40,967 bases of DNA from Geothrix sp. (GTDB taxonomy: Bacteria; Acidobacteriota; Holophagae; Holophagales; Holophagaceae), in assembly GCA_030681515.1 (NCBI GenBank), contig JAUXSE010000044.1:1-40967 (forward strand), in the 5' to 3' direction. Under the pieces are notes generated by a model. It searched no databases and was not told the DNA's origin. It was given only the letters and a program-made list of their open reading frames with translations. Positions 1-38,752 of the stretch are shown in pieces; position 1 is the stretch's first letter, and every line of letters starts with the position of its first letter. The translations under genes were made by a program, and so were the position numbers.

Positions 1-185
1 GGCGCCCTTGCGCGCAGGCGCGCCAGGGCTGTCACCCCGCTGGGGGCACTGCCCTCCGGGTATCGCAAGCGTTGCTTGCTCCCGCTCGCTGGGGCTCGCG
101 GACCCGGAGCCTCTCCCCAGACCCCCGCCACGTGGTGCCCACGAGCGTATTGGATGATCCAGCCATTTCGCGCGGGCACCACTAG
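1..185 (-). repeat. CTAGTG...CACTAG structured element, copy A (partial, runs off the left edge)
   Basis: Read on the minus strand from 185 down, this starts CTAGTGGTGCCC. It folds into a first hairpin (GTGGTGCCC paired with GGGCACCAC, loop of about 33 nt containing CGAAAT), then has the conserved words CACGTGGC, GGGGGTCTGGGG and GGGGTGACAGCC, then a GC-rich hairpin followed by GGCGCC at the window edge. The same words in the same order occur at 10120-10322 and 36669-36876. Copy A differs by an extra arm of roughly 55 bp in its second hairpin (about positions 60-115), which is itself self-complementary. The TAG at 184-182 is the stop codon of the glycosyltransferase gene. The 3' part with the last hairpin lies outside the window. 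Family unknown to me. Confidence 0.75.
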
Positions 186-9307: not shown

Positions 9308-9970
9308 ATGGACCCCGGCCGGCTGCGCTTCCTGGGTGTGGATCTCCTGGCGAAGGAGGGCGTGCTGGCCCCCCGGGAGGAGACGGAAATCCTGGGCAGG
9401 GAGGTTCTCGCCATCCTTCAGGCCCTATCGCTTGAGGATCCGGAGCGGGAACTGCGGATGATTGACATGGGGTGCGGATCGGGGAATCTCGCCTGCGCCG
9501 CCGCCGTGGCTGTCCCTCAAACGAGGGTCTGGGCCTCGGATATCACCACCTCCTGTGCCGAGCTGACGCGCGCGAATGTGGCTCACCTGTCCCTGCAGCG
9601 CCGGATCGAGGTCACGCAAGGCGATCTTTTCGCGCCCCTCAAGGATCGGGGACTCGAAGGCACCATGGATGTCGTGGTGATGAACCCTCCCTACATACCC
9701 TCCACATCGCTCGAGACAACCCACGCTGAACTGCTCCGCCATGAACCGAGGGAGGCCTTCGACGGTGGCCCCTACGGCATCTCGATCCTCACCCGGCTCC
9801 TGCAGGAGGCGCCGCCTTTCCTGAAGGAAGGAGGACACCTTCTTTTCGAGTTCGGCCTGGGGCAGTCGAGGATCGTCCAATCGCTCGTGGAGCGGAAGAA
9901 ACTCTATTCCGGGGTCAGGTTTGTCCCGGATACCAACGGTGAAGCCAGGGCAGTGGTTCTCAGGAGGTAG
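9308..9970 (+). CDS. PrmC/HemK-like SAM methyltransferase
   Basis: 220 residues. It has the PrmC-type lead motif LAPREETEILG (compare PRPETE in PrmC), the SAM-binding loop IDMGCGSGNLACAAAV (about residue 52) and the amide-methylation motif VVMNPPYIPS (about 125), where NPPY positions a glutamine or other amide nitrogen. PrmC itself is about 280 residues with an N-terminal helical release-factor-binding domain; that domain is missing here. This is therefore probably not the release factor enzyme but a tailoring N-methyltransferase. Neighbouring amide-forming enzymes make an amide substrate attractive, as inference only. Last gene of the operon, four bases after the SGNH-like gene. Confidence 0.8.
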   Translation: MDPGRLRFLGVDLLAKEGVLAPREETEILGREVLAILQALSLEDPERELRMIDMGCGSGNLACAAAVAVPQTRVWASDITTSCAELTRANVAHLSLQRRIEVTQGDLFAPLKDRGLEGTMDVVVMNPPYIPSTSLETTHAELLRHEPREAFDGGPYGISILTRLLQEAPPFLKEGGHLLFEFGLGQSRIVQSLVERKKLYSGVRFVPDTNGEARAVVLRR

Positions 9971-10119: not shown

Positions 10120-10322
10120 CTAGTGGTGCCCATCCGAAATACTCGCAACAAACGAATGCAGGTGGGCACCACGTGGCAGGGGTCTGGGGGCATGGCAGTG
10201 CCCCCAGGGGGGTGACAGCCAGGACACGCATCGCGTGCCCTGGCGCCAGAGGGGCTATGCCCCGATGGAAGTGCACCCCGCGGAGATGCATTGGTACATG
10301 TTCTTCTGGCGGGGTGCACTAG
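10120..10322 (+). repeat. CTAGTG...CACTAG structured element, copy B (complete, 203 bp)
   Basis: Bounded by CTAG at 10120-10123 and 10319-10322. Hairpin 1: 10123-10134 with 10161-10172 (12 pairs, one wobble). Hairpin 2: CTGGGGGCA/TGCCCCCAG, 10184-10207. Conserved GGGGTGACAGCC at 10209-10220. Hairpin 3: 10219-10243, CCAGGaCACGC against GCGTGcCCTGG. Hairpin 4: GGGGC-TAT-GCCCC at 10251-10263. Conserved GATGGA. Hairpin 5: 10270-10280 with 10310-10320. The same plan occurs in copy C with different stem sequences. Loop 1 AATGCA (10155-10160) is complementary to loop 5 TGCATT (10287-10292). It contains no protein gene; an open frame entering the aromatic hydroxylase gene crosses hairpin 5 but lacks a ribosome site there. 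Role unknown. Confidence 0.8.
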
Positions 10323-19233: not shown

Positions 19234-20634
19234 TCAAGAACCTGAAGACCGAAGACCGAAGACCGAAGACTGAAGACTGAAGACTGAAGACTGAAGAATC
19301 CATTCCACGGCGCGCTCGGCGCCCCAATACCGGCTTCCCTTCACCAGGATACGGGCTCCGGGCGGGATTGCGGAGAGCCCCGCCGCGTCCTCGCGCAGGG
19401 CCTCGAAATCCGGGAAGGCCACGGCCCGCAGACCAAAGCCCTCGGCCAGATCCCCGGCGAATTCACCGTAGGCCCAGAGCCGGGAGATCCCCAGGCCCTT
19501 CAGGGCCGCGCCGGTCTCCCGGTGGATCCGCGGGGCCTCCGGTCCCAGCTCCCGCATGGATCCCAGCACCGCCACGGACTCGCCCCCCGGCAGCAGCGAA
19601 AGGGCGCGGGCGCAGGCCAGGATGGAATCGGGGCTGGCGTTGTAGGTCTCGTCCAGCAGGCAGCCACCGCCCGCCAGGGCATGGATCCGTCCGCGCCCAG
19701 CCTCGGGCACCACGGTGCCGAGGCCCTCGGCCACGCGGCCCGGGTCGAATCCCATGCGGATGGCGAGGGCCGCGGCCAGGGCGGCGTTCCGGATCTGGTG
19801 CTCCCCGGGAAGCTGGAGGCGGATGGGGATCCGTCCACGCGGCGTCCGCAGATGGAAGGCTCCCCCCGAGGCGCCGAGGGATTCCACCGCTTCCCAACCG
19901 AAGGCCTCGCCATCCCCCACGGGCAGCGCCTCCGCGTGGCGGGCCCAGGGCTGTTCCGCGATCCAGCGGCACCAGGGATCCGAGGCCAGGTGCGCCCATG
20001 CGCCGCCGCGGTTCAAGCCGGCCACCAGTTCGCCCTTGGCTTCGGCGATGCCCTGCTGGCCATGCTCGAAATGCTCGATGTGGGCCGTGCCCACCAGGGT
20101 GATGAGGCCCGCGTCCAGGGGGGCGATTTCCGTGAGCCGCCGGATCTCTCCGGGCGTGCTCATGCCCAGCTCCAGCACCGCGGCGCCCAGGCCCTCGGGC
20201 AGCGTCGCCAGGGCCTCGGGCAGCCCGAGGGTGTTGTTGCGGTTGCCCGGAGTCTTCCATCCGCCCACGGCCGCGGCGAGAAGCTCCTTGGTGCTGGTCT
20301 TCCCCACGCTCCCGGTGACACCGAACACCGTCCCCGGTCGCACCGCCGCCAGCCGGGCCTGGCCCCAGCGCTGGAGGGCGGCCAGCGTATCCGGCACCAC
20401 CCATTGGGGACAATCGCTGTCCATCGGATGATCCACCAGGAGAGCCACGGCGCCCTTCTCCACCGCCTGGATCGCGAAATCGTGCCCGTCCCGCCCGGCC
20501 CGCAGCGCCACGAAGCAGGCACCAGGCTGGATCGTCCGGGTATCCATCGAGAGCGAGGAAGGCACCACCGCGCCATCGCCCAGGATCTCGCCGCCCACCT
20601 GGGAGGCGGCCTGGAACAGGGACCATGGGTTCAA
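19234..20634 (-). CDS. murF: UDP-N-acetylmuramoyl-tripeptide--D-alanyl-D-alanine ligase
   Basis: 466 residues from TTG at 20634, which has GGAGG at ideal spacing and begins NPWSLFQAAS; longer upstream frames are not supported. MurF features: MDTRTIQPGACFVALRAG (uridine-binding domain), ATP loop FGVTGSVGKTSTKELLA (about residue 112), NRNNTLGLPEAL, and DETYNASPDSI (about 330). The domain ends at about RAVEWI. The last 20 residues (three turns of a 7-residue cycle LQSSVF-S/G) are encoded by the 7-bp tandem array at 19242-19297, so the C-terminus is repeat-derived and its length and frame depend on copy number. The start overlaps the stop of a small upstream ORF. Confidence 0.93.
   Translation of the reverse strand: MNPWSLFQAASQVGGEILGDGAVVPSSLSMDTRTIQPGACFVALRAGRDGHDFAIQAVEKGAVALLVDHPMDSDCPQWVVPDTLAALQRWGQARLAAVRPGTVFGVTGSVGKTSTKELLAAAVGGWKTPGNRNNTLGLPEALATLPEGLGAAVLELGMSTPGEIRRLTEIAPLDAGLITLVGTAHIEHFEHGQQGIAEAKGELVAGLNRGGAWAHLASDPWCRWIAEQPWARHAEALPVGDGEAFGWEAVESLGASGGAFHLRTPRGRIPIRLQLPGEHQIRNAALAAALAIRMGFDPGRVAEGLGTVVPEAGRGRIHALAGGGCLLDETYNASPDSILACARALSLLPGGESVAVLGSMRELGPEAPRIHRETGAALKGLGISRLWAYGEFAGDLAEGFGLRAVAFPDFEALREDAAGLSAIPPGARILVKGSRYWGAERAVEWILQSSVFSLQSSVFGLRSSGS
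19242..19297. repeat. 7-bp tandem array inside the murF 3' end
   Basis: Eight head-to-tail copies of CYGAAGA on the plus strand (first CTGAAGA, three CCGAAGA, four CTGAAGA). Because 7 is not a multiple of 3, the murF frame reads a 7-residue cycle. The array has no stop in any frame, and murF stops six bases beyond it. Confidence 0.95.
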
Positions 20635-21823: not shown

Positions 21824-21842
21824 CTGGGGCCCCTGAAAAGCG

Positions 21843-22211
21843 GAACACAGAGGACACAGAGTGCCGCAGAGGACACAGAGAAAAACGCTGGACACGGAAG
21901 ACACGGAAAACGGCAGGAAGACACGGAAAAGGACAGGGGCATCCGCCCCGAAAGCACGGGCAGTAACCCGGGGGCGCCTGATCCGCGTCCCGAAAGCGCG
22001 GTCCAGGCGCCCCCGGGTTCCCTTCCGGCAAAGCCGGAAGCCGCCTTCGGCGGGCCTGTGCGGCGAGCGCCACGGCCCCTTCCGTGTCTTCCGTGGAATT
22101 CCGTGTCTTCCGTGACCAGCCAAGGCACTTGAGCACTTGCGGGGGCCACCGATGGAACCATCACCATGCAGTTCTCTGTGTCCTCTGCGGCACTCTGCGT
22201 CCTCTGTGTTC
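21843..22211. repeat. Nested palindromic element between murE and sua5
   Basis: Outer arms: 21843-21882 and 22171-22210 are inverted copies matching at 39 of 40 positions and built from CAGAGGACA-type words. Middle arms: 21890-21932 and 22076-22117, built from GGAAGACACGGAA words. Inner hairpin: AACCCGGGGGCGCCTG (21965-21980) with CAGGCGCCCCCGGGTT near 22004-22019. Then two small hairpins (CTTCCGGC-AAA-GCCGGAAG and CCGCC-TTC-GGCGG). The whole 412-bp gap holds no convincing gene; open frames across it are repeat translations. The GACACAGAG and GACACGGAA word families also occur as intergenic repeats in unrelated bacteria, from general knowledge. Confidence 0.9.
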
Positions 22212-22235
22212 CTGCTTTTCCTGCTTTGAAAACCA

Positions 22236-25840: not shown

Positions 25841-25860
25841 GGGAGGACCGGGAAAGGTGG

Positions 25861-25909
25861 GCTTCAGGCTTCAGGCTTCAGGCTTCAGGCTTCAGGCTTC
25901 AGGCTTCAG
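25861..25909. repeat. 7-bp tandem array upstream of ftsI
   Basis: Seven exact copies of GCTTCAG on the plus strand, ending 20 bp before the ftsI start. The unit differs by one base from the CTTCAGT reading of the murF array (complement of CTGAAGA units). Confidence 0.95.
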
Positions 25910-25983
25910 GAAAGAATCCTGGTGGTTCCAACGGGCGCACATCAAGCCGTGAACGGCTTCCTCGATCTGAACGCCCCCCCTGG

Positions 25984-26109
25984 AGCCTACAGCCTAGAGC
26001 CTAGAGCCTAGAGCCTAGAGCCTAGAGCCTAGAGCCTAGAGCCTAGAGCCTAGAGCCTAGAGCCTAGAGCCTACAGCCTAGAGCCTAGAGCCTAGAGCCT
26101 ACACCCTAC
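25984..26109. repeat. 7-bp tandem array downstream of ftsL
   Basis: Seventeen copies of AGCCTAG (a few end in AC instead of AG) plus one degenerate unit. The ftsL stop codon (26108-26106, minus strand) lies in the degenerate unit, so the array begins exactly at the end of ftsL. Together with the GCTTCAG array it makes up most of the 265-bp ftsL-ftsI gap; the 70 bp between the two arrays hold nothing recognisable. Confidence 0.95.
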
Positions 26110-35706: not shown

Positions 35707-36672
35707 ATGACCTGGAAACCCAGTCCCCGCATGGAGGTGGATCCCTTCGCCCTGCCCCTCGACGCCCGGCAGGGCTACCTGCTGTCCCGCCTGGATGGAA
35801 CCCTGGATGTGCCGACCCTCGCCGTCCTCATGAACCTGGATGAGGAGCAGATGGCCGTCATGCTGGCTGAGCTCGTGGCCCTGGGCGCGGTGGCGCCGGA
35901 AGCGCCCGCGGCGGCGCCGGCGACACCGCCCGGGCCGGAGCCAGGACCGGAACCCACCGGTGCCGAGGAGGACGCCCCCACGGCCTCGGCCAGGGCCGCC
36001 ACCCACCGCGCGTTCTTCGAGCAGCACCTGCACAAGCGCCCGGTGGACGAGCGGGTGGCCCAGGCGCGGATGGCGGTCGAGCCCGATTTGAGCGCCTTCT
36101 GCTTCGACCCCGCGGCCGAGGTCATCCGCGCCGTGCTGGAGAACCCGCGAGTGGGCGGCGCCCAGGCGCGTCTCATCGCGGCCCACCACCGGACGGCCGC
36201 GGGCCTGGAGGCCCTGGGCGCGCGCACGGCCTTCACGAACGATGGCGGCGTGCGCCGCGTCCTGCTGCAGAATCCCCTCCTGCCGCCCAGCCTCTACCGG
36301 CGCCTCTGGTCCCCCCGTCGCCTGCTGGAACAATACCTCGTGGCCACCACCCGGGACGCGCCGGAGCAGATCCGCGCCATGGCCCGGGACCTGCTGCGGG
36401 CCAGCTTCAACCAGCGCACCGGGGAGGAGCGGGCGGAGATCATCCTCACCACCGAGGGCCGCTGCCTCGCGAGCCTCGTGGGCCTCACCATTGACGGGCA
36501 CACGACGGCCATCCTGTGCCGCCGCACCTACGTCTCCACCCTGCTCATCCAGAACCTTGCCCGCTGGAGTGCGGCCCCGCCCCAGCTCATCGCTCATCTC
36601 AGGCGGCAGGATGTGGTGAAGCGCAATGCGGCGCTGCGGCAGCTGCTGGAGCGGCACCCGAACGCCAGCTAG
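35707..36672 (+). CDS. Uncharacterised protein with Pro/Ala linker and helical repeat-like C-terminus
   Basis: 321 residues. N-terminal part (1-62) reads like a small helical domain (LDARQGYLLSRLDGTLDVPT, then LMNLDEEQMAVMLAELVALG), similar in style to domains in acidobacterial and myxobacterial signalling proteins. A Pro/Ala/Glu linker follows (about 62-98). The rest is amphipathic helices suggestive of HEAT-like repeats (AEVIRAVLENPRVGGAQARL, VRRVLLQNPLLPPSLYRRLW). No catalytic motif seen. The stop codon TAG is the first TAG of element copy C. Starts 38 bases after radA without a clear ribosome site. Confidence 0.8.
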   Translation: MTWKPSPRMEVDPFALPLDARQGYLLSRLDGTLDVPTLAVLMNLDEEQMAVMLAELVALGAVAPEAPAAAPATPPGPEPGPEPTGAEEDAPTASARAATHRAFFEQHLHKRPVDERVAQARMAVEPDLSAFCFDPAAEVIRAVLENPRVGGAQARLIAAHHRTAAGLEALGARTAFTNDGGVRRVLLQNPLLPPSLYRRLWSPRRLLEQYLVATTRDAPEQIRAMARDLLRASFNQRTGEERAEIILTTEGRCLASLVGLTIDGHTTAILCRRTYVSTLLIQNLARWSAAPPQLIAHLRRQDVVKRNAALRQLLERHPNAS

Positions 36673-36876
36673 TGGCGCGTCCCCGAAGTGTCTTGAATAG
36701 TTTCGGCACTCCGAGACGCGCCACTTGCCGGGGGTTCGGGGGCGCGGCATGGCGCCCCCGAGGGGTGACAGCCCGAAAAGCATGGCTTTTCGGGCGCCAA
36801 AGGGGGCTTGCCCCCATGGAAGTGCGACATCCCCAGCAAAAGGTTAATTCAAGGAACTCAGGGGATGTCGCACTAG
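36669..36876 (+). repeat. CTAGTG...CACTAG structured element, copy C (complete, 208 bp)
   Basis: Bounded by CTAG at 36669-36672 and 36873-36876. Hairpin 1: 36671-36681 with 36715-36725, with an inner CCGAA/TTCGG pairing. Hairpin 2: 36736-36745 with 36752-36761. Conserved GGGGTGACAGCC at 36762-36773. Hairpin 3: 36772-36781 with 36785-36794 (10 pairs, loop ATG). Hairpin 4: GGGGGC-TT-GCCCCC at 36802-36815. Hairpin 5: 36821-36834 with 36861-36874 (14 perfect pairs). Compared with copy B, nearly every stem differs in sequence but pairs fully. Loop 1 CTTGAAT (36692-36698) is complementary to loop 5 ATTCAAG (36847-36853). Both end TAGs are stop codons of the converging neighbours. Confidence 0.8.
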
Positions 36877-38600
36877 GCGTAGACCCGCTGCAGACCGGGA
36901 TCCTGGGTCAGCTCCTCGATGAGGTCCCGGACGCTCACCAGTTCGCGGAGCTTGGCGCCGTTGCTGCCGGTGAAGAAGAGGCCGCTCTCCTCGTTGCCCT
37001 GCATGGCGTCGGCCAGGCGGTCGGCGATGCAGTAGCCCACCGCCATGGCGCCCTTGCCGTGGCCGCAAGGCGAAAGGCAGTTGCTCACGCAGCGGATCTG
37101 GGGCGCGGTGCCGGCCTCGATGCGCCGGTGGAGGCTGGTGCGCACCCCCCGGGCAGGCAGGCCCACGGGGGATTTCATGAGGCCGATGTCCTCGGCCCTG
37201 GCCCGGAGGATGACCTCCTTGAAGATCGGCGAGGCATCGCACTCGAAGGTGCCGATGAAGCGGGTGCCCATCTGCACGCCGTCGGCACCCAGGGCCAGGA
37301 AGCGCTGGATGTCCGCGTGATCCCAGACACCGCCCGCCACCAGGATGGGGAAGTCGCCCCACCTGTCCCGCTCCTCGATCACCTCGGGCAGGATGTTCTC
37401 CAGGGTGTGGGCGGGATCCTCGCAGCCTTCGTGGCTGAAGCCCTGGTGGCCGCCGCTTTCAGGCCCCTCCAGGACGACCGCGTCCGGCAGGCGGTTGTAT
37501 TTCCGCTGCCACTGCTTGCAGATCACGCTGAGTGCCCGGCCGGAAGACACGATGGGCACCAGAGCCACGTCCGCGTCACCCACGTAGCCCGGCAGAGCCA
37601 GGGGCAGGCCCGCGCCGGACACGATCATCTGGGCGCCGCCCGCGAGGGAGGCCCGCACGGCGGCCTCGTAGCCCTCGATGGCGCAAAGGATGTTCACGCC
37701 CACGGCACCGTGCCCCTCGGAGCGCTCCCGCGCCGCCCGGACGATCCATTCCAGGGCCTTGGGCGGGTTCAGCGCATCGGTGCCATCGGGGCGGCCGAGG
37801 CGCATCTTGGGGTTGGCCGATCCGTGGTAGCCCGTGCCGATGGCAGAGACCAGGCCCACGCAGCCGGCCCTGGCCACGGCGCCCGCCAGACCTTCCCAGG
37901 AGACGCCCACACCCATGCCGCCCTGCTGGATGGGGTAGGCCAAGTCCAGATTGCGGATGCGCAGGCGCGGCAGGGTGCAGGCGCCGCGGCGCACGAAGGC
38001 CTGGGCCATGGAATCCAGGCCAGCCATGAGGCGGGTCCGGAAAGCGGCCAGGGGAGAGGCATCCAGCATCGAGGGCGTGCGCGGCTGCAGTCCGATGGCG
38101 CCATCGGCCATGGCCTGCTTCGCTTCGGCCTCGGTATCGGCCATGGCCATCACGGGCAGGCCCAGGAAGCGCAGGGCCGCCACATCACAGGCCCGGGCGA
38201 GCAGGGCAGACGCCCCCCCGGCCTTGGCCCGGGCGCCTTCTTCGGGATTCTGCACGGCCACGAGGCGGGGCAGGTTGGCGTGGCGCAGCATGGCCAGGGA
38301 AGGCGGCAGTTCCGCCGTGTGCAGCAGGAAGGCCACACCGGCCTCGCGGGCGGCGGCCATCACGCTGTCCGCACTATCGCGGAGACCGCGCAGATCCAGG
38401 CCGATCTTCGCCCCTTCACGCATGGAGGCCTTGAGCTCTTCGAGCCGCGCGCGAAGCTTGGCCGCATCCGGAAAGGCATCGGTGCGGGGTAAGGCCCAGC
38501 CCCCGGCCCGCAGGAAGGCGGCCTGGAAGTCCAGGGAACCCGGCGCCTGCCAGCCCTGCAGGGTGGGCGAGGTCGCTGTGTTGAAGAAGGACTCGGCCAT
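36873..38600 (-). CDS. Nitronate monooxygenase/FabK-like flavoprotein with N-terminal extension and Cys cluster
   Basis: 575 residues from ATG 38600 (GGAGG at ideal spacing). The first 200 residues form an extra barrel-like region (LRGLRDSADSVMAAAREAGV, AVQNPEEGARAKAGG). The main FMN barrel starts RNLDLAYPIQQGGMGVGVS (about 222) and has GGAQMIVSGAGLPLALP, the flavin phosphate/His region EGPESGGHQGFSHEG (about 385), VAGGVWDHADIQRFLALGAD and GTRFIGTFECDAS. Near the C-terminus CVSNCLSPCGHGKGAMAVGYC holds four cysteines that could ligate a metal or Fe-S cluster. Ordinary enzymes of this family are 310-360 residues. It may oxidise nitronates or reduce enoyl thioesters. The stop codon comes from element C. 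Confidence 0.85.
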   Translation of the reverse strand: MAESFFNTATSPTLQGWQAPGSLDFQAAFLRAGGWALPRTDAFPDAAKLRARLEELKASMREGAKIGLDLRGLRDSADSVMAAAREAGVAFLLHTAELPPSLAMLRHANLPRLVAVQNPEEGARAKAGGASALLARACDVAALRFLGLPVMAMADTEAEAKQAMADGAIGLQPRTPSMLDASPLAAFRTRLMAGLDSMAQAFVRRGACTLPRLRIRNLDLAYPIQQGGMGVGVSWEGLAGAVARAGCVGLVSAIGTGYHGSANPKMRLGRPDGTDALNPPKALEWIVRAARERSEGHGAVGVNILCAIEGYEAAVRASLAGGAQMIVSGAGLPLALPGYVGDADVALVPIVSSGRALSVICKQWQRKYNRLPDAVVLEGPESGGHQGFSHEGCEDPAHTLENILPEVIEERDRWGDFPILVAGGVWDHADIQRFLALGADGVQMGTRFIGTFECDASPIFKEVILRARAEDIGLMKSPVGLPARGVRTSLHRRIEAGTAPQIRCVSNCLSPCGHGKGAMAVGYCIADRLADAMQGNEESGLFFTGSNGAKLRELVSVRDLIEELTQDPGLQRVYA

Positions 38601-38752
38601 GAAGGCCTCCGGAACGATCCGCGCGGAAAGCCCGGACCGTAGGCCATTGTCGCCCGGAATGGCTGTGACCGGGAGCAAGGATCTTACCCAGGGTCAAACC
38701 ATGCATTTGTGCCCTTTGCGGCGGCCCGGCCACAATCGGATCAGGAGTCCCC

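What the first reader, a model, noticed from the sequence alone, without database searches (positions are those of the whole stretch)
36669..36876. Undescribed structured repeat element with covarying hairpins, three copies in 41 kb
Copies A (1-185, minus), B (10120-10322) and C (36669-36876) share ends (CTAGTG...CACTAG), length (203 and 208 bp in the complete copies), and conserved words in fixed order: CACKTGSC, GGGGT, GGGGTGACAGCC, GGCGCC, ATGGAAGTGC. Between these words lie five hairpins. Their stems differ: hairpin 3 is CCAGGaCACGC in B, CCCGAAAAGC in C and another GC-rich sequence in A, and hairpin 5 is AGTGCACCCCG in B but AGTGCGACATCCCC in C. Every stem still pairs. Conserved unpaired words plus compensatory stems are what a selected fold looks like. 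I cannot match it to group I or II introns, IscB/TnpB guide RNAs, REPs or attC sites.
Basis: seen in the sequence. Interest (0 to 1): 0.88.

Follow-up and report, generated by a model that had tools for sequence, protein, structure and literature searches.

The report
Hairpin-built mobile element with conserved core
A gene-less DNA element of about 204 bases, folded into five conserved hairpins, has spread to at least 24 places in this Acidobacteriota genome, and its folded core recurs next to tRNA genes in unrelated bacterial phyla, which suggests an undescribed mobile element whose moving enzyme is still unknown.

Summary
The window has three copies of a ~204-bp element (one cut by the contig end), and the genome has 24. 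Five hairpins covary strongly: 27 of 52 pairs change on both sides, score 0.297 against 0.115 shuffled and at most 0.093 slid. Nothing reaches an Rfam gathering score.

It is a mobile, non-coding element. For copy C a congener has the empty site, gap-free with one CTAG where the window has CTAG-element-CTAG. Presence is patchy within the genus (0-24 copies). Ends are imperfect inverted repeats, each a hairpin. The outer bases of CTAG vary independently, so TA is the duplicated core; 43 of 49 sites are CTAG, often stop codons of flanking genes.

A homologous folded core occurs in Omnitrophota, Elusimicrobia and a MAG labelled Actinomycetota. There most copies lie just 3' of tRNA genes, duplicate the tRNA 3' end, and carry an arm complementary to that tRNA's T-arm.

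Resident Y1 and IS110 enzymes were not found in the window's genome; its one IS630 has different ends; reverse transcriptases do not track copy number. The mobilising enzyme is unidentified.

Verdict: a new, structured, MITE-like family of unusual breadth. RNA/structure-guided integration is not excluded, but untested.

The parts
36669..36876 (+). Copy C, complete element (208 bp including CTAG at both ends), C subfamily
   Evidence: empty site in congener G163
36669..36672 (.). Left CTAG of copy C; TAG is the stop codon of the upstream ORF ending at 36672
36672..36724 (+). Hairpin 1 of copy C: arm GTGGCGCGTC (36672-36681) with GACGCGCCAC (36715-36724)
   Evidence: covariation of helix 1
36736..36761 (+). 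Hairpin 2 of copy C: TCGGGGGCGC (36736-36745) with GCGCCCCCGA (36752-36761), preceded by conserved GGGGT
36762..36770 (+). Conserved unpaired word GGGGTGACA
   Evidence: invariant columns
36771..36795 (+). Hairpin 3 of copy C: GCCCGAAAAGC with GCTTTTCGGGC
   Evidence: 8 of 11 pairs change on both sides
36797..36819 (+). Hairpin 4 of copy C: CCA..GGGGG with CCCCC..TGG
36821..36874 (+). Hairpin 5 of copy C: AGTGCGACATCCCC (36821-36834) with GGGGATGTCGCACT (36861-36874)
36873..36876 (.). Right CTAG of copy C; on the minus strand TAG is the stop codon of the convergent nitronate monooxygenase gene 36873-38678
10120..10322 (+). Copy B, complete element (203 bp), between a methyltransferase gene (9308-9970) and an aromatic amino acid hydroxylase gene
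1..185 (-). Copy A, truncated by the contig end; carries an extra hairpin inserted in stem 2

Best explanation
This is a non-autonomous, gene-less mobile element that works like a MITE but has a conserved folded core. SHOWN: about 204 bp; imperfect terminal inverted repeats, each of which folds into its own hairpin; a three-hairpin core with invariant unpaired words; five covarying stems; insertion at TA, usually inside CTAG, leaving TA (CTAG) on both sides; patchy presence and near-identical copies at different sites, so it has moved recently; a homologous core in other phyla lying at tRNA 3' ends. INFERRED: a recombinase supplied in trans recognises the hairpin ends and the folded core, joins the ends through TA (circle or direct transposition) and inserts at TA. 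Landing on CTAG, often the shared stop codon of convergent genes, spares both genes and lets copies accumulate. In the tRNA class the left end carries or restores the tRNA 3' end, and the left inner arm pairs with the T-arm, so the end hairpin doubles as a target match. The enzyme is unknown.
For: 24 copies in the genome, control 0. Empty site for copy C in G163: 178/200 identical, no gap, a single CTAG. Copy numbers of 0 to 24 within one genus. Near-identical full copies at different loci, 1-5 differences. Covariation in the full element and in the core of 41 elements from other phyla. Outer bases of CTAG vary independently (GTAG, TTAG, CTAA), so TA is the common core; 43 of 49 sites are CTAG, against 6.8% of TA sites in the window. 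Left and right loops match as inverted repeats, mean score 8.35 against 5.2 shuffled. Tandem copies share one CTAG (L051, L054, L061). 33 of 43 elements examined from other phyla have a same-strand tRNA ending within 110 nt upstream, with arms matching their own tRNA better than others' (0 of 2000 permutations).
Against: No transposase with matching ends was found, and no recurrent gene sits next to the copies. The tRNA class duplicates roughly 16-32 bp rather than TA, so the two classes may not share one insertion chemistry. Only one insertion site was checked for an empty allele. Tandem copies could also arise by one copy inserting into the CTAG at another's end. The permutation test on tRNA arms is helped by several elements sharing the same tRNA.
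Confidence: 0.6

Rival explanations
1. An ordinary IS630/Tc1-mariner MITE (like RUP or Correia): a resident IS630 transposase moves it by its terminal repeats, and the hairpins are incidental.
For: TA duplication and strong CTAG preference are IS630 hallmarks (PMC2170065 reports TA duplication and cites Tenzen and Ohtsubo on CTAG). TA-flanked structured MITEs are known (PMC2229807). G000 has one DDE_3 gene.
Against: That IS630 has inverted repeats CTAAACATAGCGTC..., unlike the element's. High-copy G180 (98% complete, 18 matches) has no DDE_3 match. A MITE would not need covarying end hairpins or a core conserved in tRNA-linked elements of other phyla.
Confidence: 0.2
2. An RNA- or structure-guided integrating element: the folded core is a scaffold bound by an unknown recombinase and the inner arms are guides that choose the target.
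For: Inner arms covary with the outer arms and match the T-arm of their own tRNA. The core is conserved while ends and targets differ between lineages. G-T mismatches are tolerated somewhat more than A-C on the strand as read, which suggests a single-strand fold.
Against: No IS110 in G000 or G206. In the CTAG class the inner arms match the element's own ends, not the target. The G-T signal is modest (52 observed against 92 shuffled; A-C 22 against 70). No transcript evidence.
Confidence: 0.15
3. A site-specific element moved by a tyrosine or serine recombinase, with the hairpins as inverted-repeat core and arm sites, as in tRNA-targeting integrative elements.
For: Insertion in the tRNA T-loop with restored tRNA 3' ends, tandem arrays, and a near-palindromic junction GGGGTGCACTAGTGGTGCCC.
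Against: Only 2-4 bp shared at CTAG sites, which are scattered; no integrase next to any copy. The families are too common to test by presence, and this was not tested.
Confidence: 0.15
4. A REP/RAYT or IS200-type palindromic MITE moved by a Y1 transposase.
For: Tetranucleotide plus hairpin at both ends resembles a REPIN (sequence).
Against: No Y1_Tnp (PF01797) in G000 (99.5% complete), G180, G157, G163, G179 or G183; no obvious strand bias.
Confidence: 0.03

Closest known systems
TA-flanked bacterial MITEs (Correia/NEMIS, RUP, ERIC, CIR)
   Same: Under or about 200 bp, no transposase gene, mostly inverted-repeat ends, TA at the termini, stable long stem-loops (PMC2229807).
   Different: Five covarying hairpins with invariant unpaired words; each end is its own hairpin; the core recurs in several phyla; relatives sit at tRNA genes; no matching IS found.
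IS630 / IS870 type elements
   Same: TA duplication with CTAG preference (PMC2170065). IS870 is remembered, not tested, as using CTAG to gain a stop codon.
   Different: No gene; ends differ from the resident IS630.
REPINs with RAYT transposases
   Same: Tetranucleotide next to a hairpin at both ends in inverted orientation.
   Different: CTAG rather than GTAG, a ~100-nt structured middle, no Y1 transposase found in the genome.
IS110 bridge RNA elements
   Same: A structured non-coding part whose arms match element ends or target; a 2-bp core.
   Different: Bridge RNA uses internal loops pairing with both DNA strands (PMC11208160); here apical hairpins; no IS110 recombinase found in G000.
tRNA-targeting integrative elements
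   Same: Insertion in the tRNA 3' part with the gene restored.
   Different: About 200 bp, no integrase gene.

Membership tests
MITE (general) | Short, non-coding, multiple copies | tested here: met
   about 204 bp, 24 copies, no gene within or recurrently beside it
MITE (general) | Terminal inverted repeats | tested here: met
   imperfect ~33 nt: CTAGTG plus GAAATAnCTGGATCA at both ends; mean 8.35 against 5.2 shuffled
MITE (general) | Target duplication shown by an empty site | tested here: met
   one site, copy C against L157; CTAG once when empty, twice when filled
MITE (general) | Ends match an autonomous IS in the genome | tested here: inconclusive
   the one IS630 found has different ends; other IS families not surveyed
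IS630/Tc1-mariner MITE | TA duplication, CTAG preference | tested here: met
IS630/Tc1-mariner MITE | Resident IS630 transposase in high-copy genomes | tested here: not met
   none in G180; none found in incomplete G157, G163, G179, G183
REPIN/RAYT | Y1 transposase in the genome | tested here: not met
IS110 bridge RNA element | DEDD recombinase in the genome | tested here: not met
   none in G000 or G206
Retron / group II intron-like | Reverse transcriptase tracking copy number | tested here: not met
   none found in G157, G165, G179, G188
Known Rfam RNA family | Score above gathering | tested here: not met
   best weak match terC, 19 bits against 39.9, other strand
ISfinder element | Match to a catalogued IS or MITE | not testable with these tools
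   ISfinder not available
Expressed structured RNA | Discrete transcript | not testable with these tools
   no RNA-seq

The most novel reading that the evidence does not exclude
The folded core is a scaffold, RNA or single-stranded DNA, for an undescribed recombinase, and the flanking arms are guides. Changing the arms retargets the element, so the same core serves TA/CTAG sites in Acidobacteriota and tRNA T-loops or a 5S rRNA gene in other phyla: a new nucleic-acid-guided mobile system.
Probability: 0.15. Interest if true: 0.92.

Novelty: new variant of a known kind. Interest (0 to 1): 0.68.

Why it matters
A folded core conserved across several phyla is not expected of a MITE, whose middle is normally free to drift. 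It implies that something binds the fold. Finding the enzyme could reveal a recombinase that recognises structure, possibly with programmable targets. The family also inserts in tRNA and 5S rRNA genes while restoring them and uses CTAG stop codons as near-neutral landing sites, so it bears on how small elements spread without harm. It is a ready-made family for Rfam or a MITE catalogue.

Tried and rejected
Rfam at gathering and permissive levels: nothing. Y1 transposase: not found. IS110: not found in G000 and G206. Reverse transcriptase: no correlation. IS630: the one in G000 has different inverted repeats. Search for a recurrent neighbour gene by all-against-all BLASTP of ORFs near the copies: only conserved tRNA-neighbour genes and spurious frames. 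Phages, plasmids and IMG/VR: no match. Replication-strand bias from 20-kb GC skew: mixed signs, no conclusion. Strand of the fold from G-T against A-C: only suggestive. First end-detection scripts were poor and were replaced. MAFFT misaligns the left ends of a few divergent elements in A3, which lowers rather than raises the helix 1 counts. Literature searches found no description of this family. The weak Omnitrophota hits near E 0.001-0.01 proved to be CTAG-class elements on inspection, so they were kept.

Full report
1. Observation. Copies B (10120-10322) and C (36669-36876) are as described, and copy A (1-185, minus strand) is a real but truncated copy with an extra hairpin in stem 2. B and C fold at z = -7.3 and -7.0 against dinucleotide shuffles; truncated A at -1.65. 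The word GGGGTGACAGCC occurs 22 times in the 3.2-Mb genome and its reversed control 0 times. A covariance model of the core (R1, 95 positions) adds loci on C1 and C54, so with the two truncated contig-start copies the total is 24. They fall into a few subfamilies with different stems.

2. Structure. On 27 full-length elements (A3), 91.7% of cells pair, 27 of 52 pairs have changes on both sides, and the covariation score is 0.297 against 0.115 for shuffles (0 of 500) and at most 0.093 for slid versions. In 41 elements from other phyla the core gives 26 of 29 pairs with double changes and a score of 0.295 against 0.105; that alignment was fitted to the model, so the count leans towards the structure, but the slid controls reach at most 0.067. 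G-T pairs (52) are less depleted relative to shuffles (92) than A-C (22 against 70), which weakly points to a fold of the strand as read. Between the stems stand conserved words: GGGGT, GGGGTRACA, GCGCCAnAGGGG, TGGRAGTG.

3. Mobility. A 604-base query made of the two flanks of copy C joined by one CTAG matches G163 of the same genus, contiguous and gap-free, with a single CTAG (89% over 200 bp). G161, G186 and G168 have the same gene pair with other short spacers and no element. Within the sampled genus, presence is patchy: many near-complete genomes have none, while G000 has 24, G180 18, G157 16 and G179 10. Full copies at different loci differ by as few as 1-5 bases. Tandem copies share one CTAG (L051, L054, L061). 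Internally deleted copies occur in G180.

4. Ends and target. The left end (CTAGTGGTGCCCACTCGAAATAGCTGGATCA) and the reverse complement of the right end (CTAGTGCACCTCGCCTGAAATACCTGGATCA) are imperfect inverted repeats. The outer bases vary independently: 43 CTAG, 3 GTAG, 2 CTAA, 1 TTAG among 49 sites, whereas CTAG is 6.8% of TA sites in the window (that window count includes the elements' own CTAGs and a tandem array). So TA is the duplicated core and CTAG the preferred context. In copy C the left TAG is the stop codon of the upstream ORF and the right CTAG the stop codon of the convergent nitronate monooxygenase gene; the empty site shows that the two genes overlapped at that CTAG. Several copies in G000 and G180 also sit on a TAG that ends a long open frame with coding-like third-position GC.

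5. Relatives. A 24-base two-part pattern hit 54 stretches in GTDB-scale genomes: mostly Holophagaceae, also other Acidobacteriota, Omnitrophota, Elusimicrobia, and MAGs labelled Actinomycetota and Myxococcales. The Myxococcales record is probably a mis-binned contig, since its element equals a G000 subfamily and the 9.8-Mb genome holds one copy. The model finds the core in 20 of 145 sampled Omnitrophota genomes and 3 of 199 in the Elusimicrobia sample. Of 43 elements examined from these phyla, 33 have a same-strand tRNA ending within 110 nt upstream. The 3' part of that tRNA is repeated after the element, commonly 16-32 bp, and the arm before the core is complementary to the T-arm of the same tRNA, up to 15 nt; own-tRNA matches average 8.3 nt against 5.4 for other tRNAs, with 0 of 2000 permutations as high. 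One element lies antisense in a 5S rRNA gene with a ~38-bp repeat ending near the gene's end (L154). G001 holds both classes: L124 and others have CTAG ends like those of the window. So the hairpin that opens the element starts at the insertion point in both classes; in the tRNA class its loop contains the restored tRNA end. This architectural reading is inference.

6. Mechanism. No gene recurs next to the copies. Resident Y1 transposase and IS110 recombinase were not found in G000. Reverse transcriptases do not track copy number. G000 has one IS630, but its inverted repeats (CTAAACATAGCGTC) are unlike the element's, and G180, with 18 matches, has no DDE_3 match. I therefore commit to a non-autonomous, MITE-like element mobilised in trans by an unidentified recombinase that probably recognises the end hairpins and the folded core (0.6). 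An ordinary IS630 MITE (0.2), a guided system (0.15) and a tyrosine/serine recombinase element (0.15) remain; they are partly sub-cases of the first, so these figures overlap.

7. Known kinds. It works like TA-flanked bacterial MITEs such as Correia, RUP, ERIC and CIR (PMC2229807), and its target preference is that of IS630 (PMC2170065). It fails the tested defining features of REPIN/RAYT and IS110 bridge RNA elements. It differs from known MITEs by its covarying five-hairpin architecture, its cross-phylum core and its tRNA-linked relatives. No paper in the searched library describes it, but most subscription journals, preprints and ISfinder were not searched. I rate it a new variant of a known kind, with a real though minority chance of being a new mechanism.

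Noticed in passing
L005 and L009 (G000 C17 and C34): Two copies share a 194-bp left flank (1 mismatch) but have different right flanks; one contig ends there. A segmental duplication, an assembly artefact or co-mobilised flank.
   Followed up: partly
L241, G000 C3:52770-53887: A single IS630 element with TIR TAAACATAGCGTC..ATGCCGCATAA lies inside what looks like a type I restriction specificity gene.
   Followed up: partly
window 25979-26101: Tandem array of CCTAGAG, 17.6 copies; further heptamer arrays at 19242-19297 and 25860-25910.
   Followed up: no
window 21842-22212: 41-nt inverted repeat, 98% complementary, 289 nt apart, built of GGACACAGAG-like repeats.
   Followed up: no
L146 upstream of the element: Group I intron-like sequence within what looks like a tRNA gene just before a tRNA-class element.
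   Followed up: no
L065 (Omnitrophota): DNA methyltransferase and a possible nuclease gene lie next to the tRNA-Lys element but not at the related site L028.
   Followed up: no
L002, L008, L011, L013, L022 and others: Optional extra hairpins inserted in stem 2 (~57 nt) and after stem 4 (~36 nt, CCCATAGATCCTGGCC...), recurring across subfamilies like modules.
   Followed up: partly
L132/L153 (Omnitrophota G079): Elements alternate with tRNA-Met and tRNA-Val; the right end GAGCGAACGAC abuts the 5' end of tRNAs in several genomes.
   Followed up: partly
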